This document shows, piece after piece, positions 57,196-64,000 of a DNA stretch of 64,000 nt. The notes under the pieces were generated by a model. It was not told where the DNA came from. It was given only the letters and a program-made list of their open reading frames with translations, and made no database searches. The stretch spans positions 2,790,001-2,854,000 of the forward strand of contig NZ_JAGIOB010000001.1 of NCBI RefSeq assembly GCF_017876495.1. Direction: 5' to 3'. Each line of letters starts with the position of its first letter. Within the stretch, counting starts at the first letter, position 1. The position numbers were made by a program, and so were the translations under genes. This stretch comes from Microlunatus capsulatus (lineage in GTDB: Bacteria; Actinomycetota; Actinomycetes; Propionibacteriales; Propionibacteriaceae).

Positions 57196-57936
57196 GTGAT
57201 CAGCACCCAGGAAGTGCCCCTGGCCTTCGACGAGGCGGCCCCCAGCTACGACGCGATGGTCGCGCTCAACCCCGGCTACCACGCGCACCTGGCCACGGCG
57301 GCCGAGGCGCTGCTGGAGGCCGCTCCGGCCGGCCGCCCGCTGGCGCTGGTCGACCTGGGCTGCGGGTCCGGCGCCTCGACGCGGGCCCTCGTGACCGCCG
57401 CGCGCGACGCCGACCGCGACGTCGCCCTCACCGGGGTCGACGCCTCCTCCGGGATGCTGGACGAGGCCCACGCCAAGCGCTGGCCGACCGGGGTCTCGTT
57501 CGAGCACGGGCTGGCGCAGGACCTGGCCGCCCGCCGGTCCGAGTTCGGCCTGGCGGGGCCCGTCGACGGCGTGCTGGCCGCCTACCTGTTCCGCAACGTC
57601 GGCCCGGACGAGCGCGACGCCGTGCTCCGCGACGTCCACGACCTGCTGGCTCCCGACGGCGTCCTGGTCGTGCAGGAGTACTCCGTCGCCCAGTCCCGGG
57701 TGGCCGACCTGGTCTGGTCCCTGGTCTGCTGGCTGGTCGTCATCCCGCTCAGCTGGGTGACGTCGCGGCAGACCCGGCTCTACCGCTACCTGTGGCGCAG
57801 CGTGCGCGCCTTCGACGCCGTGCAGACCTTCGTCGACCGGCTCTACGCCGCCGGCTTCGTCGACGTCGAGGTCTCGACGGCGCCCGGCTGGCAGCGCGGC
57901 ATCCTGCACACGTTCCGGGCGAGGCGGGCGGGGTGA
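57196..57936 (+). CDS. CrtT-like SAM-dependent methyltransferase of the carotenoid locus
   Basis: 246 residues, GTG start. Motif I is LVDLGCGSGASTRALV (around 52-67), then VALTGVDASSGMLDEA and LLAPDGVLVVQEYSV. A hydrophobic segment near residues 170-189 (DLVWSLVCWLVVIPLSWVT) suggests membrane association, fitting a lipophilic substrate. It overlaps the CrtU-like gene by 4 nt (GTGA). In Streptomyces griseus, as I recall, crtT and crtU follow crtY in one operon; here the same pair occurs without crtY. The methylated product is not known. Confidence 0.75.
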   Translation: MISTQEVPLAFDEAAPSYDAMVALNPGYHAHLATAAEALLEAAPAGRPLALVDLGCGSGASTRALVTAARDADRDVALTGVDASSGMLDEAHAKRWPTGVSFEHGLAQDLAARRSEFGLAGPVDGVLAAYLFRNVGPDERDAVLRDVHDLLAPDGVLVVQEYSVAQSRVADLVWSLVCWLVVIPLSWVTSRQTRLYRYLWRSVRAFDAVQTFVDRLYAAGFVDVEVSTAPGWQRGILHTFRARRAG

Positions 57937-59483
57937 GCGCTGGGGGCTGGTTCCCGGGCCGCGACCCGCGGGCCGTCCGGCACCCGGGCGCCCCGGGCGC
58001 GCGGCGCAGCACGGGCGGGCACCCGGTCCTGGTGGCCGGCGGCGGCATCGCCGGGCTGACCGCCGCCACCGGCCTCGCCGAGCGGGGGGTGCCGGTGACC
58101 CTCGTCGAGGCGCAGCCCCAGCTGGGCGGCCGGGTCCGGGCCTGGCCCGTCGAGCACCCCGGCGCGGGCGGCCCCCCGGTGACGATGAGCCGCGGCTTCC
58201 ACGCCTTCTTCCGGCAGTACTACAACCTGCGGGCGCTGCTGCGCCGCACCGACCCGGGCCTGGACCGGCTGGTGCCGCTGGCGGACTACCCCCTGGTCTC
58301 GGCCGCCGGCCAGCGCGACTCCTTCGCCGCGGTCCCGCGGACCCCGCCGCTCTCCATCGCCGCCTTCGTGGCGCAGAGCCCCTCCTTCACCGCCGCCGAC
58401 CTGGCCCGCGTCGACATCCCGGCGGCGCTGGAGCTGCTGGACGTCGACTTCCCCGCCACCTTCTCCCGCTACGACGGCGAGAGCGCGGCGGACTTCCTGG
58501 ACCGGCTGCGCTTCCCCTCCGACGCCCGGCACCTCGCGCTGGAGGTCTTCGCCCGCAGCTTCTTCGCCCACCCGTCGGAGTTCGCGGCGGGGGAGCTGGT
58601 GGCGATGTTCCACTCCTACTTCACCGGCTCGGCCGAGGGCCTGCTCTTCGACGTGCCGCGGGACGACTACGACACCAGCCTCTGGGCGCCGCTGGGCCGC
58701 CACCTGCACGGCCTCGGCGTCGAGGTGGCGACGTCGGAGACGGTCGAGCACGTGGCCGGGACCGGCGACGAGCTCGAGGTGACGCTGGGCTCGGGGGAGC
58801 AGCGCCGGGTCTCCGGCGTCGTGCTGGCCACCGACCCGGGTACGACCCGGCGCCTCGTCGACGGCTCCCCGCTGTTCGACGACGACTACCGCGGCCGGGT
58901 GGGCGCGGGCCGCAACGCGCCGCCGTTCGCCGTCTGGCGGCTCTGGCTGGACCGCCGGGCCGACGTCGAGCGCGCGCCGTTCCTCGGCACCAGCGGGTTC
59001 GGGCCGCTGGACAACGTCTCGCTGCTGGAGCGCTTCGAGGACGGCGCCCGCCGCTGGTCCGAGGCGCGCGGCGGCTCGGTCGTCGAGCTGCACGCCTACG
59101 CGCTGGCCGACGGGGTGGACGAGGACGCGCTGCGGGCCGAGCTGCGGCACCACCTCGACGTCCTCCTCCCCGAGCTGGCCGGCGCGGCCGTGCTGGCGCA
59201 GGAGTGGCTGGTGAGTGCGGACTGCCCGCTGGCCGGCACCGCGCCCTGGCAGCTGCGGCCCGGCGTCGCGACCCCCGACCCGCGGGTGGTGCTGGCCGGC
59301 GACGGCATCCGCTGCGACCACCCGGTCGCCCTCATGGAGCGGGCCGCGACGACGGGCTGGCTGGCCGCGAACGCGCTGCTGGCCCGCGAGGGCGTCGCCG
59401 GCCACGACCTCTGGACCGTCCCGACGGCCTCCCGGCACCCCGTCGCCGGCCGGGTCCGGCGGCTGCTCACCCGCGCCGGCTGA
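57933..59483 (+). CDS. CrtU-like FAD carotenoid aromatase/desaturase
   Basis: 516 residues, GTG overlapping the previous stop. FAD motif VAGGGIAGLTAATGLAERG (GGGIAG about 36-41), then LVEAQPQLGGRVRAWPVE and the stretch MSRGFHAFFRQYYNLRALLR, which closely matches CrtU proteins from memory. AGELVAMFHSYFTGSAEGLL and LLFDVPRDDYDTSLW also fit. CrtU converts beta-ionone rings to aromatic phi-type rings by desaturation and methyl shift. Normally its substrate comes from a lycopene cyclase, which is not in this window. It converges on the Rieske gene. Confidence 0.82.
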   Translation: MSAGGWFPGRDPRAVRHPGAPGARRSTGGHPVLVAGGGIAGLTAATGLAERGVPVTLVEAQPQLGGRVRAWPVEHPGAGGPPVTMSRGFHAFFRQYYNLRALLRRTDPGLDRLVPLADYPLVSAAGQRDSFAAVPRTPPLSIAAFVAQSPSFTAADLARVDIPAALELLDVDFPATFSRYDGESAADFLDRLRFPSDARHLALEVFARSFFAHPSEFAAGELVAMFHSYFTGSAEGLLFDVPRDDYDTSLWAPLGRHLHGLGVEVATSETVEHVAGTGDELEVTLGSGEQRRVSGVVLATDPGTTRRLVDGSPLFDDDYRGRVGAGRNAPPFAVWRLWLDRRADVERAPFLGTSGFGPLDNVSLLERFEDGARRWSEARGGSVVELHAYALADGVDEDALRAELRHHLDVLLPELAGAAVLAQEWLVSADCPLAGTAPWQLRPGVATPDPRVVLAGDGIRCDHPVALMERAATTGWLAANALLAREGVAGHDLWTVPTASRHPVAGRVRRLLTRAG

Positions 59484-59499
59484 GCCGGCGCGGCGATTC

Positions 59500-60570
59500 T
59501 CAGCCGGGGAACTCGCCCCGCTGGCGCAGGTCGTAGCGGCGCTCGGCGTAGTCGAGGTCGTCGACCCAGAGCTGCCGGGCGGTCCGGCGGATCAGGGGCT
59601 TGAGCACCGGGGAGAACCAGCGGGCCGCGGCGAAGCCGGGGCGGTCGGAGTAGGCGATCGTCGCCTCGGTGATCATCGTCCTCGGCCGGCCCTCCTCGTC
59701 CACCCCCAGCGGGGTGGCGTGGGTCTCCACGACGCTGCCGGCGCCCTCGCCCTCGGTGATCCGCATGACGATGGTGCGGGCGTCGGGGCAGCTGAACTCG
59801 GCCTGGACGGGGACGCCCCACGTGCGGCTGAGCCGGAACGTCACGTCGACGACCATCGTCGTGTCGTCGCTGGCGTCGTCGTCGACGACGAGGTGGCTGA
59901 AGGCGTAGGGGTGGAACCAGGAGCCGTGCCACGGGTCCAGCCGGTTGGCGATGACGTCCTGCGGCTCGCAGACGCCGGGCTGGGCGATCACGGCGGCGAC
60001 CGAGCCCAGCAGCGGCGGGCGCGGCGGGAGCGAGGGCCGCTCGGTGGGCTCCTCGCCGGGCGTGGGCAGGCCCACCCAGACCAGCACGCCGTCGTCGAAG
60101 GCGCGGTAGGGGCTCCAGCCGGGCTGCGGCGCGTTCTCGAAGGCCAGGCCGTGCCAGCGGCAGTACATGGTGCCGTCCAGCACGGGGCAGCGGTCCATCA
60201 GCGCGCCCAGGTGCGGGCAGGCGCCCGGCCCGGCGACCAGCGTGCCCTCGCCGTCGCGCCACAGCACGACCTCGCGGCCGGCGATGGTGCGGGCGACGGA
60301 CTCGGCGCGGCCGACGTCGGTGCTGGCCCCGGCGACGTACCAGCCGCCCGAGTTCTGCGCCTGGGAGACCGCGAGCGCGGCGGCGATCCGCCGCGGCTTG
60401 GCCAGCCGCCAGGTCGAGATCATCCGGTCCTCGCGGGGCTGCGGCACCCGGTAGAGCGGGATGCGGCTGCGCACCGACGCGGGCATCGGGACCCCGGGCA
60501 GCAGGTCGGGCTCGGCGGCCTGCTGGCCGGTGGCCTGGCCGACGGCGTCAGCGGGGGTGCGGAGCGACAT
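59500..60570 (-). CDS. Rieske non-haem iron oxygenase (DUF5914 type) in the crt operon
   Basis: 356 residues from the ATG at 60570, overlapping the crtB 3' end by 23 nt. Rieske cluster ligands are CPH (C118, H120) and CRWH (C137, H140). A mononuclear iron motif D-x2-H-x4-H is visible at D212, H215 and H220 (LDPWHGSWFHP). It therefore looks like a complete oxygenase alpha subunit, not only an electron carrier. Related proteins occur in actinobacterial carotenoid clusters (recalled). Likely hydroxylates or oxygenates a carotenoid end group; no reductase partner gene is in the window. Confidence 0.82.
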   Translation of the reverse strand: MSLRTPADAVGQATGQQAAEPDLLPGVPMPASVRSRIPLYRVPQPREDRMISTWRLAKPRRIAAALAVSQAQNSGGWYVAGASTDVGRAESVARTIAGREVVLWRDGEGTLVAGPGACPHLGALMDRCPVLDGTMYCRWHGLAFENAPQPGWSPYRAFDDGVLVWVGLPTPGEEPTERPSLPPRPPLLGSVAAVIAQPGVCEPQDVIANRLDPWHGSWFHPYAFSHLVVDDDASDDTTMVVDVTFRLSRTWGVPVQAEFSCPDARTIVMRITEGEGAGSVVETHATPLGVDEEGRPRTMITEATIAYSDRPGFAAARWFSPVLKPLIRRTARQLWVDDLDYAERRYDLRQRGEFPG

Positions 60571-61603
60571 GGTCGGCGGTCCTTCCTGGTCCGGTCTGGG
60601 CGGCGGCGGGCGGCGTCGGCGGCCCCGCCACCATGATGCGCGCGGCGGTGGTGGCCTTGCGCCAGGTGGGCACCCGGGCCCGGGTGGTGAAGACGTCGTA
60701 GTCGGCGGCCTCGATGCGCTCGAGGATCTGGCTGTAGAGCACCCGGGCGGCGCCGACGCAGCGGGCCGAGCGGCCCGGCAGCAGGGCGATGCCGGTGTCG
60801 GCCAGCGCGTAGAGCTCGCGGTTGCGGGCGATCTGGAAGGCCAGGAACTCCCGCCACTCCGGCGTCGCGCGCCGCCGGCCGCGCGCCTCCACGGCCTCAC
60901 CTGCGGGGGGGACGACCCCCCCGAGCCCCCCCGCGACACGCGAAGGGTCGAGCTCGACGCCGAAGCGCCGCAGGTCCTCCTGCGGCACGTAGACGCGGCC
61001 GCGGTCGAGGTCCTCGTCGACGTCGCGCAGGAAGTTCGTCAGCTGGAAGGCCAGGCCCAGGGCACGAGCCGGCTCCTTCGCCATCGGGCTGGCAGGCTCC
61101 AGCACCGGGAGCATCATCTCCCCGATGACCGCGGCCGAGCCCTCCATGTAGCCGCAGAGGTCGTCCCACGTCTCGTAGGCGGTGGTGGTGAGGTCCATCG
61201 CCATCGCGCCGAAGAAGCGGTCGAAGCACTCGCGCTCGATGTCGCAGCCGACGACGGTGGCGGCGACGGCGGCCATCACCGGGTCGTCGCCGGTCGGGGC
61301 ACCGGCCTCCTCGGCCGCCACGGCGGTCCGGTAGCGGTCGGCGAAGGCCTGCAGCGCGGCCGCGGTGGCCGCGGTGTCCCCGCCGTCGATGACGGCCTGG
61401 TCGTCGACGATGTCGTCGGCGAGCCGGCAGAGCGCGTACACCGCGTGCACGTGCTTGCGGCGGGCCCGGGGCAGCAGAGCGGCGCCCCAGTAGTAGGTGG
61501 TGCCGTAGCGCCAGGTCAGCCGGGCGGCCTCGCGGTAGCCCGCGTGCAGCAGGGCCGTGCGGCCGCCGTCGGAGGCGGCGGGGGCGTCGGTGGTGCGGCT
61601 CAC
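60548..61603 (-). CDS. crtB: Phytoene synthase
   Basis: 351 residues from the GTG at 61603, overlapping the crtI stop (GTGA). First Asp-rich motif LADDIVDDQA (63-67), second LRDVDEDLDRGRVYVP (194-198), plus YCRYVAG-like ECFDRFFGAMAMDL. It condenses two geranylgeranyl diphosphates to phytoene. A short proline/glycine-rich insert after RVAGGLGG (around 220-240) is unusual compared with most CrtB and may be a linker. Last but one gene of the crtE-I-B-Rieske operon. Confidence 0.93.
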   Translation of the reverse strand: MSRTTDAPAASDGGRTALLHAGYREAARLTWRYGTTYYWGAALLPRARRKHVHAVYALCRLADDIVDDQAVIDGGDTAATAAALQAFADRYRTAVAAEEAGAPTGDDPVMAAVAATVVGCDIERECFDRFFGAMAMDLTTTAYETWDDLCGYMEGSAAVIGEMMLPVLEPASPMAKEPARALGLAFQLTNFLRDVDEDLDRGRVYVPQEDLRRFGVELDPSRVAGGLGGVVPPAGEAVEARGRRRATPEWREFLAFQIARNRELYALADTGIALLPGRSARCVGAARVLYSQILERIEAADYDVFTTRARVPTWRKATTAARIMVAGPPTPPAAAQTGPGRTADHVAPHPR

Positions 61604-63090
61604 CGGGTCGGCCCCGGCAGGTAGCCGCTCACCCGCTCGGCGGCGAGCTTGCCCGAGATCAGCACCATCGGCACGCCGACGCCGGGCACCGTGCCCGAGC
61701 CCGCGAAGAAGAAGCCGGGCACCCGCTTCTCGACGTTCGGCGGCCGGAACGGGCCGGTCTGGGGGAACGTGTGCGCGAGGGCGAACGGGGTGCCGGCTGC
61801 CATCCCCTGGCGCTGCCAGCCGAGCGGGTCGACGAGCTCCTCGGTGACGACGTCGTCCGGGTAGCCGTTGGCGGAGAGGAAGCCGTGCAGCCGGTCGCGC
61901 ATGGCCGGCGCCTCCTGCACCCAGTCGATCTTGCCGCCGGAGAGGTTGGGCACGGGCTCCAGGACGAACAGCGACGAGCAGCCCTCCGGCGCCGCGGAGG
62001 GGGCGTCGAGCGAGGCGATGGTGACCATCCGCGACGGGTCGGGCATCAGCTCGCCGCGGTCCAGCAGCGCGTCGAAGGCCGTGTTCCACTCGTGCCCGAA
62101 GTGGATGTTGTGGTGCGCGGCGCTCTCCTCGGGGAGGCCGCGGACGCCGACGTGCCAGACGACGGCCGAGGGCGAGTAGTCGCCCTTGCCCGGGCGCGCG
62201 GCCCGCGGCGGGGTCAGCTCGGGCAGCAGGTGCTCGTAGGCGACGGGGGTGTCCAGCGTGCAGACGACGGCGTCGGCGCTGACCGCCTCACCGCCCGCGA
62301 GGCGGACGCCGGCCACCCGGCCGGTGGGGGAGCGCAGCACCGTCTCGACGCTCTCGCCGTAGCGGAACTGCGCGCCGGCCTTCTCGGCCGCCTGCGCCAG
62401 CGCCAGGGGCACCGCGTGCATGCCGCCCTCGGGGAAGAAGACCCCCTCGATGCTGTCCATGTAGGTGATCACCGCGTAGAGGGCCAGCGCCTTCTCGGGC
62501 GCCAGGCCGGCGTACATCGCCTGGAAGCTGAACAGCCGGTGCAGCCGCGGGTCCTGGAAGTGGGAGCGGACGGCCGGGCCCAGCCGGCGGAACGCGCCGA
62601 GCTGCAGCAGCTTGGCGGCGGCCCGCGGGTTCTTCAGCAGCCCCAGCGGGGAGTCGAAGTTGGTGTCGATGAAGTTCGGCATCTCGGCGACGTAGAGCTT
62701 GCGCAGCCACTCGACGAAGCCCTCGAAGGCCGCGGCGTCGACGCTGCCGCAGGTCTCGGCGATCTCCTGGCGCATCGCGTCGCGGTCGCCGCGGACCATG
62801 ATCGTGCTGCCGTCGGCGTACACCGCGCGGTAGGCCGGGTCGAGGCGCTTGAGCGGGCCCAGCGCGGACAGGTCGCTGCCGGCGGCGCGGAGCACGTCGG
62901 CGATGAGGTCCGGCATGGTCAGCACGCTGGGGCCGGTGTCGAAGGTGAAGCCGTCGCGCTGCAGCAGCCCGTTGCGGCCGCCGGCGATGTCCTCCCGCTC
63001 GACGACGGTGACGTCGTAGCCGCGACCGGCGAGGTGGCAGGCGGTGGAGAGGCCGGCGAGACCGGCCCCGATGACGACGACGGAGCTCAT
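61600..63090 (-). CDS. crtI: Phytoene desaturase
   Basis: 496 residues from the ATG at 63090. FAD motif VVVIGAGLAGLSTACHLAGR (GAGLAG 8-13), then VVEREDIAGGRNGLLQRDGF, YMDSIEGVFFPEGGMHAVPL and the C-terminal CrtI signature PNVEKRVPGFFFAGSGTVPG. It introduces double bonds into phytoene to give neurosporene or lycopene. The number of desaturation steps cannot be told. It lies 76 nt after crtE and overlaps crtB by 4 nt. Confidence 0.93.
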   Translation of the reverse strand: MSSVVVIGAGLAGLSTACHLAGRGYDVTVVEREDIAGGRNGLLQRDGFTFDTGPSVLTMPDLIADVLRAAGSDLSALGPLKRLDPAYRAVYADGSTIMVRGDRDAMRQEIAETCGSVDAAAFEGFVEWLRKLYVAEMPNFIDTNFDSPLGLLKNPRAAAKLLQLGAFRRLGPAVRSHFQDPRLHRLFSFQAMYAGLAPEKALALYAVITYMDSIEGVFFPEGGMHAVPLALAQAAEKAGAQFRYGESVETVLRSPTGRVAGVRLAGGEAVSADAVVCTLDTPVAYEHLLPELTPPRAARPGKGDYSPSAVVWHVGVRGLPEESAAHHNIHFGHEWNTAFDALLDRGELMPDPSRMVTIASLDAPSAAPEGCSSLFVLEPVPNLSGGKIDWVQEAPAMRDRLHGFLSANGYPDDVVTEELVDPLGWQRQGMAAGTPFALAHTFPQTGPFRPPNVEKRVPGFFFAGSGTVPGVGVPMVLISGKLAAERVSGYLPGPTR

Positions 63091-63166
63091 GCGCGGGCCG
63101 GGGACGGGGTGGTCATGCGGGTGGGGTGCTCCTCGAGCGGTGGGGTGGGACGGGGGCGAGGGCCGC

Positions 63167-64000
63167 TCACCGGTCGCGCCAGGCGATCCGGTGGGCCATC
63201 TGGGTGAGGCCGGCGACGCCGTCGGGGTCGAGCCCCTCGGCGCCGAGGGCGGCGACGGCGGCGTGCACGTGGGCGCTGATCCGGGACTCGACGGCGTCGA
63301 CGACGCCACCGGCCCGCAGCGCGTCCTGCAGGAAGACGACGTCGGCCGGGCTCAGCGCCGGGGTGCCGACCCGTTCCAGCACGTCGCGCGCCGGGCCCTG
63401 CAGCAGCTCGTGGGCCAGGGAGAGGATGACGGTGGGCTTGCCCGAGAGCAGGTCGTCACCGGCCGGCTTGCCGGTGCGGGCGGGGTCGCCCCAGACGCCC
63501 AGCAGGTCGTCGCGCAGCGCGAACGCCTCGCCGACCTCGGCGCCGTAGGTGGCCAGCACCTCGACGGTCGCGCGGTCGGCGCCGGCCGCGGTGGCGCCCA
63601 GCTGGAGGGGCCGCCAGACGGTGTAGCAGCCCGACTTGGCCTGGGCCACCTGGCGCGCGTGCTCCAGGTCGCGGCGGCCGGCGGCGCTGCCGGTGAGGTC
63701 CCGGCTCTGCCCGCGGACCAGCTCGACGACCAGCACCCGCCACACCGACCGCATGGCCGCCGGCAGCGAGCTGACGAGGTGGTCGGCCTCGGCGTGCGCG
63801 AGGTCGCCGACCAGGACCGCGATGCTGTCGCCGAAGCGGTTCGCGCTGCCGCGGCCCCCGCTGTGCAGGTGCAGCTGGGCGGCGAGGGTGTGCACCGAGG
63901 GCTGGCCGCGGCGGGAGGCGGACTCGTCCATGACGTCGTCGTGGATGAGGGCGAAGATGTGCAGCAGCTCCAGCGCCGTCGCGACCTGGAGGACGTCGGC
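63167..64000 (-). CDS. crtE: Geranylgeranyl diphosphate synthase, C-terminal part
   Basis: The frame is open to the window end, so the N-terminus is missing; about 277 residues remain. The first Asp-rich motif is IHDDVMDES and the second is LRDDLLGVWGDPARTGKPAG, followed by DDLLSGKPT, diagnostic of actinobacterial CrtE-type polyprenyl synthases. It elongates farnesyl or shorter diphosphates to GGPP, the precursor used by CrtB. It is the first visible gene of the crtE-crtI-crtB-Rieske operon; its promoter lies outside the window. Confidence 0.92.
   Translation of the reverse strand, partial: ADVLQVATALELLHIFALIHDDVMDESASRRGQPSVHTLAAQLHLHSGGRGSANRFGDSIAVLVGDLAHAEADHLVSSLPAAMRSVWRVLVVELVRGQSRDLTGSAAGRRDLEHARQVAQAKSGCYTVWRPLQLGATAAGADRATVEVLATYGAEVGEAFALRDDLLGVWGDPARTGKPAGDDLLSGKPTVILSLAHELLQGPARDVLERVGTPALSPADVVFLQDALRAGGVVDAVESRISAHVHAAVAALGAEGLDPDGVAGLTQMAHRIAWRDR

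What the first reader, a model, noticed from the sequence alone, without database searches (positions are those of the whole stretch)
57196..64000. Carotenoid cluster with CrtT, CrtU and a Rieske oxygenase but no lycopene cyclase
The visible set is crtE, crtI, crtB and a Rieske oxygenase on one strand, facing a CrtT-like methyltransferase and a CrtU-like aromatase on the other. CrtU normally needs a cyclised substrate, yet no crtY, crtYc/d or crtL gene is in view. Either the cyclase lies beyond the right edge or elsewhere, or the tailoring enzymes act on an acyclic or differently cyclised carotenoid. Methyltransferase plus aromatase plus oxygenase in one locus could give a new aromatic, oxygenated carotenoid.
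Basis: partly seen in the sequence, partly recalled or inferred. Interest (0 to 1): 0.72.

Follow-up and report, generated by a model that had tools for sequence, protein, structure and literature searches.

The report
Aromatic carotenoid cluster, cyclase encoded elsewhere
These genes look like a known kind of aromatic carotenoid pigment pathway; the ring-closing enzyme that seemed missing is encoded elsewhere on the chromosome, apparently acquired from a distant bacterium after the usual local version was lost.

Summary
The genes are real: crtT and crtU face crtV (Rieske+DUF5914), crtB, crtI, crtE. No cyclase lies beside them, but the single-contig 4.41-Mb genome encodes a full-length CrtY (TIGR01789, 429 bits, cut-off 215) about 285 kb away. 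CrtU thus has its usual cyclic substrate. The cluster matches the Streptomyces crtEIBV/crtYTU isorenieratene cluster minus crtY; the S. argillaceus version gave hydroxylated and methylated isorenieratenes. So: a known pathway type with one unusual part. In the genus (apparently Microlunatus), of 15 crtV genomes eight have crtYc/crtYd, four an unlinked CrtL-like cyclase, two (this one included) a proteobacterial-type CrtY between two genes that are neighbours in relatives, one MAG none found. crtV occurs in 57 of 296 class genomes, each with a CrtU-like gene (one only a distant homologue) and a known cyclase family. Two crtT/crtU genomes without crtV carry a cytochrome P450 in its slot, supporting CrtV as ring hydroxylase. 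A second CrtU beside CruF- and CrtI-like genes hints at another branch. All chemistry is inferred.

The parts
57196..57936 (+). crtT-like SAM methyltransferase (UbiE/COQ5 family)
   Evidence: Pfam PF01209 2.5e-14; 48% identical to the copy in the S. griseus locus L118; dN/dS 0.20 against the sister genome G301
57933..59483 (+). crtU-like carotene desaturase/methyltransferase (aromatase), GTG start overlapping the crtT stop
   Evidence: PF01593; no curated CrtU model was hit (best NCBIfam HpnE, 126.5 bits, under its cut-off of 283); 55% identical to the copy in the S. griseus locus L118
59500..60570 (-). crtV: Rieske non-heme iron oxygenase, Rieske domain + DUF5914
   Evidence: PF00355 and PF19299; iron and cluster ligands invariant in 36 of 36 rows; AF2 fold matches Rieske oxygenases
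60548..61603 (-). crtB phytoene synthase
   Evidence: PF00494 7.4e-67; start inferred from the frame
61600..63090 (-). crtI phytoene desaturase
   Evidence: TIGR02734 458 bits, cut-off 238; start inferred from the frame
63167..64000 (-). crtE polyprenyl diphosphate synthase (5' end lies 345 bases past the right edge)
   Evidence: PF00348; full ORF in L009
55672..56937 (-). ROK-family gene next to crtT, divergent; in relative G310 crtYc/crtYd lie between it and crtT
   Evidence: PF00480; L198 order ROK, crtYc, crtYd, crtT. A role in regulating the cluster was not tested

Best explanation
An isorenieratene-type cluster whose lycopene cyclase is encoded elsewhere. CrtE, CrtB and CrtI make lycopene; a distant CrtY closes both ends to beta-carotene; CrtU turns the rings aromatic; the Rieske oxygenase CrtV probably hydroxylates the aromatic ring and CrtT probably methylates the product. 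The in-cluster crtYc/crtYd pair kept by relatives was lost in this lineage and its job passed to a laterally acquired proteobacterial-type crtY. Shown here: gene families, genome-wide cyclase content, trees, synteny, conserved catalytic residues. Inferred: all chemistry, regiochemistry, the order of the CrtV and CrtT steps, and the direction of the exchange.
For: Own genome: one full-length CrtY, TIGR01789 429 bits against cut-off 215, conserved with proteobacterial CrtY, dN/dS 0.23 against G301, like crtT, crtU, crtV. Same gene set and order as the S. griseus locus L118, lacking only crtY. Genus: of 15 crtV genomes 8 have crtYc/Yd, 4 a CrtL-like cyclase, 2 CrtY, 1 none found; none of the 20 genus genomes has both classes at the thresholds used. 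The cluster-protein tree puts the CrtY pair and a CrtL-like trio next to G310, which keeps crtYc/Yd. CrtY sits between a WhiB-family and a Bpa gene; in 15 of 17 other genus genomes with the Bpa locus these two are neighbours with no CrtY match, and in the other 2 no WhiB match was in range. CrtY tree: sister to Sphingomonas, support 0.999. crtV: 57 of 57 genomes with a CrtU-like gene, 53 of 57 within 15 kb. Two crtT/crtU genomes without crtV hold a P450 between crtB and crtU; a P450 is reported to hydroxylate isorenieratene in B. aurantiacum (passage). S. argillaceus crta products and its authors' proposal for CrtaV and CrtaT (passages).
Against: No chemistry for this organism. The CrtY frame in this genome has no ATG/GTG/TTG upstream of its FAD motif in the 30 codons looked at; the first GTG lies inside the first strand, the only upstream ATN codon is ATC; G301 has a GTG. 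S. griseus CrtT and CrtV are reported dispensable for isorenieratene (cited). The S. argillaceus products were made in S. albus, which has a carotenoid cluster of its own (title of a cited paper), although the empty-vector control stayed unpigmented. CrtT occurs without CrtV in G304, where transposase genes lie between crtB and crtU, and CrtV without CrtT in G297, G298, G307. G193 has crtV and crtT but only a distant CrtU homologue 120 kb away, and matches both cyclase classes. The proteobacterial side of the CrtY tree has only four sequences. Co-occurrence counts come from related genomes.
Confidence: 0.75

Rival explanations
1. CrtV oxidises a ring methyl group to the carboxyl level, as CruH does in synechoxanthin synthesis, and CrtT makes the methyl ester.
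For: Methyl-to-carboxyl oxidation on an aromatic carotenoid is described for CruH (passages); Rieske oxygenases can oxidise methyl groups (recalled); CrtT beside CrtV.
Against: The S. argillaceus cluster gave hydroxy and methylated hydroxy derivatives; no acid is mentioned in the passages seen. The gene in the slot in G022 and G099 is a P450, and the aromatic-carotenoid P450 described is a hydroxylase of isorenieratene. CruH was not compared by sequence here.
Confidence: 0.12
2. CrtT is a C-methyltransferase acting beside the phenolic OH rather than an O-methyltransferase.
For: CrtT is a UbiE/COQ5 family member, and UbiE methylates ring carbon (recalled). The methylated S. argillaceus products were proposed from molecular formula, which does not separate C- from O-methyl.
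Against: Family membership says little about the atom methylated; the authors call the products methoxylated.
Confidence: 0.2
3. The tailoring enzymes act on acyclic or unusually cyclised carotenoids.
For: No cyclase in the cluster; a CruF-like hydratase, a kind of enzyme that acts on an acyclic end (recalled), exists elsewhere in this genome.
Against: CrtY in the genome; 57 of 57 crtV genomes in the class sample match a known cyclase family.
Confidence: 0.05
4. The distant CrtY is not expressed as a working enzyme in this strain (start codon problem), so the cluster is stuck at lycopene.
For: No standard start codon upstream of the FAD motif in this genome.
Against: dN/dS since the split from G301 is in the range of crtT, crtU, crtV; conserved residues; rare ATN starts exist (recalled).
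Confidence: 0.07

Closest known systems
Streptomyces isorenieratene cluster crtEIBV / crtYTU (S. griseus, S. coelicolor, S. argillaceus crta)
   Same: E-I-B-V run, T-U facing V, same order; T, U, V, B, I, E at 39-57% identity to the S. griseus locus L118; cluster names seen in passages
   Different: crtY absent from the cluster; the cyclase is unlinked and of another CrtY lineage (27-35% identity to actinobacterial CrtY over partial alignments)
Proteobacterial CrtY lycopene beta-cyclase (TIGR01789)
   Same: Above the equivalog cut-off; nests among Sphingomonas, Comamonas, Pantoea and Paracoccus CrtY
   Different: Not beside crtI as in the four plasmid records looked at; lies alone between a WhiB-family and a Bpa gene
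Heterodimeric CrtYc/CrtYd cyclase of actinobacteria
   Same: Stands before crtT or crtU on the cluster contig in 7 of 14 crtV-bearing genus relatives
   Different: Absent from this genome
Rieske non-heme iron oxygenases (dicamba monooxygenase, KshA and others)
   Same: Rieske motif, D-x2-H-x4-H and a late Asp invariant; fold matches from E 4.7e-12
   Different: C-terminal domain is DUF5914; 12-18% identity to solved structures in the 50 rows shown; in the class sample found only in genomes with a CrtU-like gene

Membership tests
Isorenieratene cluster of the Streptomyces type | crtE-I-B-V in one run, crtT-crtU facing crtV | tested here: met
Isorenieratene cluster of the Streptomyces type | lycopene cyclase gene within the cluster | tested here: not met
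   none in the window flank or in L009; found about 285 kb away
Isorenieratene cluster of the Streptomyces type | makes isorenieratene | not testable with these tools
   needs pigment analysis
CrtY lycopene beta-cyclase | full-length match above the TIGR01789 cut-off | tested here: met
   429.2 bits, cut-off 215.2, profile positions 5-370 of 370
CrtY lycopene beta-cyclase | complete N-terminal FAD motif with a usable start | tested here: inconclusive
   motif present; no standard start upstream in this genome, GTG in G301
Rieske non-heme iron oxygenase | [2Fe-2S] ligands C-x-H and C-x2-H | tested here: met
   C118, H120, C137, H140 invariant in 36 of 36 rows; motif recalled
Rieske non-heme iron oxygenase | mononuclear iron 2-His-1-Asp site | tested here: met
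   H215, H220 and D337/D338 invariant in 36 of 36 rows; which Asp binds is assigned by spacing, recalled; metal binding not modelled
Rieske non-heme iron oxygenase | catalytic domain fold | tested here: met
   mean pLDDT 85.5; the 50 PDB rows shown are Rieske oxygenases, TMq 0.44-0.57
CrtU aromatase | converts beta-rings to aromatic rings | not testable with these tools
   homology only: 55% identity to the copy in the S. griseus locus L118

The most novel reading that the evidence does not exclude
This strain may run two aromatic branches: a bicyclic one (window cluster plus CrtY: hydroxylated, methylated isorenieratene) and a monocyclic one in which the second CrtU, with the CruF-like hydratase and the CrtI/CrtD-like desaturase beside it, makes an aromatic carotenoid with a hydrated, 3',4'-desaturated acyclic end; CrtV and CrtT could then act on its aromatic ring to give an asymmetric aryl carotenoid not met in the papers searched here.
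Probability: 0.25. Interest if true: 0.6.

Novelty: new variant of a known kind. Interest (0 to 1): 0.4.

Why it matters
It closes an apparent pathway gap and shows one fixed aromatic-carotenoid cluster served within a single genus by three cyclase types (heterodimeric CrtYc/CrtYd, a CrtL-like enzyme, and a proteobacterial-type CrtY; the last two distantly related), with the gained gene, its insertion point and a relative in the presumed earlier state all visible. It also gives an independent argument (co-occurrence with CrtU, and a P450 in its slot in two genomes that lack it) that the DUF5914 Rieske enzyme is an aromatic-carotenoid hydroxylase, a function that in the papers seen was only proposed.

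Tried and rejected
Acyclic substrate: set aside. CrtYc/CrtYd remnant between the ROK gene and crtT: low-threshold tblastn found only chance-level pieces (best E 0.10). CrtT strictly dependent on CrtV: not supported as such, since G022, G099 and G304 have crtT without crtV; the first two have a P450 in the slot, G304 has transposase genes there. A curated CrtU model was not hit.

Papers: 'DUF5914' is in no paper of the library; 'isorenieratene/Rieske/CrtT/CrtV' gave 7 papers; synechoxanthin/CruH/CruE 9; Microlunatus/Friedmanniella/carotenoid and others 17, 15 shown, none of the 15 naming the genus; chlorobactene/CruF 3; dihydroxyisorenieratene/hydroxylase/crt 2,877, 12 shown; cyclase replacement 13, 12 shown; Brevibacterium/P450 10. 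The 2008 synechoxanthin paper is not held. Passages only were seen of PMC5993118, PMC8539372, PMC8342508, PMC2889829, PMC11998277, PMC7582328, PMC6579920 (its reference list only) and PMC12096840; the S. griseus 1999 and B. aurantiacum 2005 papers were seen only as cited there.

Rows dropped or not used: L112 and L119 from the CrtV alignment (a stop within the last five residues); L115 was missing from the list and was back; 37 of the 80 named loci were considered for that alignment and 35 used. In the CrtY tree 4 of 108 plasmid hits and 20 of the 55 other class genomes with a PF05834 match were used, plus G000, G301 and the four CrtL-like genomes. In one search the CrtY query sees Streptomyces CrtY poorly, so linked CrtY is undercounted there (18 of 80).
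Full report
WHAT IS THERE. The window is bases 2790001-2854000 of a single-contig, 4,409,943-base genome rated 100% complete. Its right end holds crtT and crtU on the plus strand, converging with crtV, crtB, crtI and crtE on the minus strand. crtU starts on a GTG overlapping the crtT stop; crtU and crtV end 16 bases apart; with the inferred starts crtV/crtB overlap by 23 and crtB/crtI by 4 bases. The 5' end of crtE lies 345 bases past the window edge, followed by idi (NF002995, 249 bits, cut-off 127) and a divergent glycosyltransferase gene. On the other side lies a divergent ROK-family gene.

THE CYCLASE. PF05834 finds one strong match in the own genome, C1:2561534-2562640 on the minus strand (E 4.7e-90, full length; the next best is 1.5e-5 and partial), about 285 kb left of crtT. 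It passes the TIGR01789 CrtY equivalog cut-off (429 against 215 bits). CrtYc/CrtYd models give nothing over cut-off. Among the frames listed within about 9 kb either side no other carotenoid gene was recognised; the two neighbours are a WhiB-family gene (28.1 bits, cut-off 23.6) and a Bpa gene (252.6 bits). Residues conserved in four proteobacterial CrtY are kept. Between this genome and the sister G301 its dN/dS is 0.23, against 0.20 (crtT), 0.20 (crtU), 0.215 (crtV), 0.33 (crtB), 0.12 (crtI), 0.13 (crtE). One blemish: in this genome no ATG, GTG or TTG precedes the FAD motif in frame; the GTG inside the first strand or an ATC overlapping the Bpa stop are the candidates, while G301 has a GTG.

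WHERE IT CAME FROM. The named genome scan returned contigs whose lengths equal those of genus members, among them Microlunatus endophyticus (448,006 bases, G298) and a Microlunatus MAG (7,741 bases, G312), so the genus is taken as Microlunatus; the organism itself is not named. Of 20 genus genomes, 15 have crtV and 16 a CrtU. Cyclases: PF05834 at 1e-15 in 6 of 20, CrtYc/CrtYd in 9 of 20, none with both. Among the 15 crtV genomes: 8 CrtYc/Yd; 4 a CrtL-like cyclase, unlinked (G296, G299, G300, G305; the G296 copy is PF05834 177.7 bits, TIGR01790 206.7 just under its cut-off of 209.5, so the name is tentative); 2 CrtY, unlinked (G000, G301); 1 none found (G309, 610 contigs, whose cluster contig begins at crtT). 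In seven of the eight, crtYc-crtYd stand directly before crtT (four) or, where crtT is lacking, before crtU (three); in the eighth (G310) a short separate contig reads ROK, crtYc, crtYd, crtT, which is the arrangement of the window with the cyclase pair still in place. A tree of cluster proteins puts G310 next to a group made of the CrtL-like trio G299/G296/G305 and the CrtY pair G000/G301 (support 0.980 and 0.963); G300 falls elsewhere, some other nodes are weak (0.10-0.66), and the tree uses cluster genes, not a species marker set. The simplest reading is loss of crtYc/Yd and takeover by CrtY here and by a CrtL-like enzyme in others. Bpa was found in 19 of 20 genomes; CrtY lies between it and WhiB only in G000 and G301; in 15 of the other 17 the two are neighbours without a CrtY match (in one of these, G303, WhiB is turned round), and in 2 no WhiB match lay in range. 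The CrtY is 52% identical to a Sphingomonas plasmid copy and 42-48% to Comamonas, Paracoccus and Pantoea copies in the 25 of 108 rows shown, but only 27-35% to actinobacterial CrtY over partial alignments; in the tree it is sister to Sphingomonas (0.999). Transfer of cyclases, and of CrtY into C40 actinobacteria, has been argued before (passages of PMC2889829); the present case looks like a further, separate one.

WHAT THE TAILORING ENZYMES DO. Becerril et al. 2018 (PMC5993118, passages) describe S. argillaceus crtaEIBV/crtaQYTU, report 3-hydroxy- and 3,3'-dihydroxy-leprotene (isorenieratene) and three new methylated derivatives after expression in S. albus, and propose CrtaV and CrtaT for the two steps; they also cite that both are dispensable for isorenieratene in S. 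griseus. Evidence added here: (a) DUF5914 is the catalytic half of a Rieske oxygenase: the cluster ligands and D-x2-H-x4-H plus a late Asp are invariant in 36 of 36 rows, the Rieske half matches solved oxygenases by sequence, and the AlphaFold2 model (mean pLDDT 85.5) matches Rieske oxygenases in the PDB (best E 4.7e-12, TMq 0.44-0.57 in the 50 rows shown). (b) In 296 class genomes crtV occurs in 57; all 57 have a CrtU-like gene at 1e-80, 53 within 15 kb (3 on other contigs, 1 far), and all 57 match a known cyclase family (41 PF05834 at 1e-30, 17 TIGR03462 at 1e-4, 1 both); CrtU without crtV in 4 (lists). The far case, G193, which is also the one with both cyclase classes, has only a distant CrtU homologue, so 56 of 57 is the stricter count. 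Genomes are related, so these are not independent draws. (c) In G022 and G099, which have crtT and crtU without crtV, the space between crtB and crtU holds a cytochrome P450 gene (PF00067, 42.9 and 35.7 bits, cut-off 22.8). A P450 is reported to hydroxylate isorenieratene in B. aurantiacum (PMC12096840, passage). Two genomes are few, and the P450 was not compared with the Brevibacterium one, but the swap points to ring hydroxylation for CrtV. (d) crtT and crtV both show dN/dS near 0.2 between G000 and G301. Against a strict V-then-T coupling: crtV without crtT in three genus genomes and no crtT match in 15 of 80 named loci, some cut by contig ends and one of them G298 again; crtT without crtV in G304, where three transposase genes lie between crtB and crtU.

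A SECOND BRANCH. A second CrtU (66% identical to the first) lies at C1:3087763-3089316, next to a CrtI-family gene close to the CrtID model (618.8 bits, cut-off 640) and a CruF-like gene (PF04240 133 bits; all three NCBIfam CruF models below cut-off). The same trio is in G296 and G305; in G305 it holds the only CrtU. CruF-type hydratases act on an acyclic end (recalled), so a monocyclic aromatic product is possible. In the class sample no other genome had two CrtU matches of this strength; G043 and G275 have a second, distant one near 1e-125.

VERDICT. Real cluster, known pathway type, missing gene found. New are the cyclase exchange within the genus and the slot argument for CrtV. Chemistry is unproven here.

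Noticed in passing
L170:6534-10316 (genome C1:3085534-3089316): Second CrtU beside CruF-like and CrtI/CrtD-like genes, over 230 kb right of the window cluster; the same trio occurs in G296 and G305.
   Followed up: partly
L010:10600-10690 (genome C1 near 2562640): The crtY frame overlaps the end of the Bpa gene and lacks an ATG/GTG/TTG upstream of its FAD motif; G301 has a GTG there.
   Followed up: partly
L199:8557-9873 and L200:7553-8869: Cytochrome P450 between crtB and crtU in two genomes of the same order that lack crtV.
   Followed up: partly
L192:2284-6218: Three transposase genes between crtB and crtU in G304, where crtV is missing.
   Followed up: partly
L065:7525-9496: In G305 the place of crtU between crtT and crtV holds an alkaline phosphatase gene (PF00245); its only CrtU is at the CruF locus. 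A similar frame lies between crtU and crtV in G299 and G296.
   Followed up: partly
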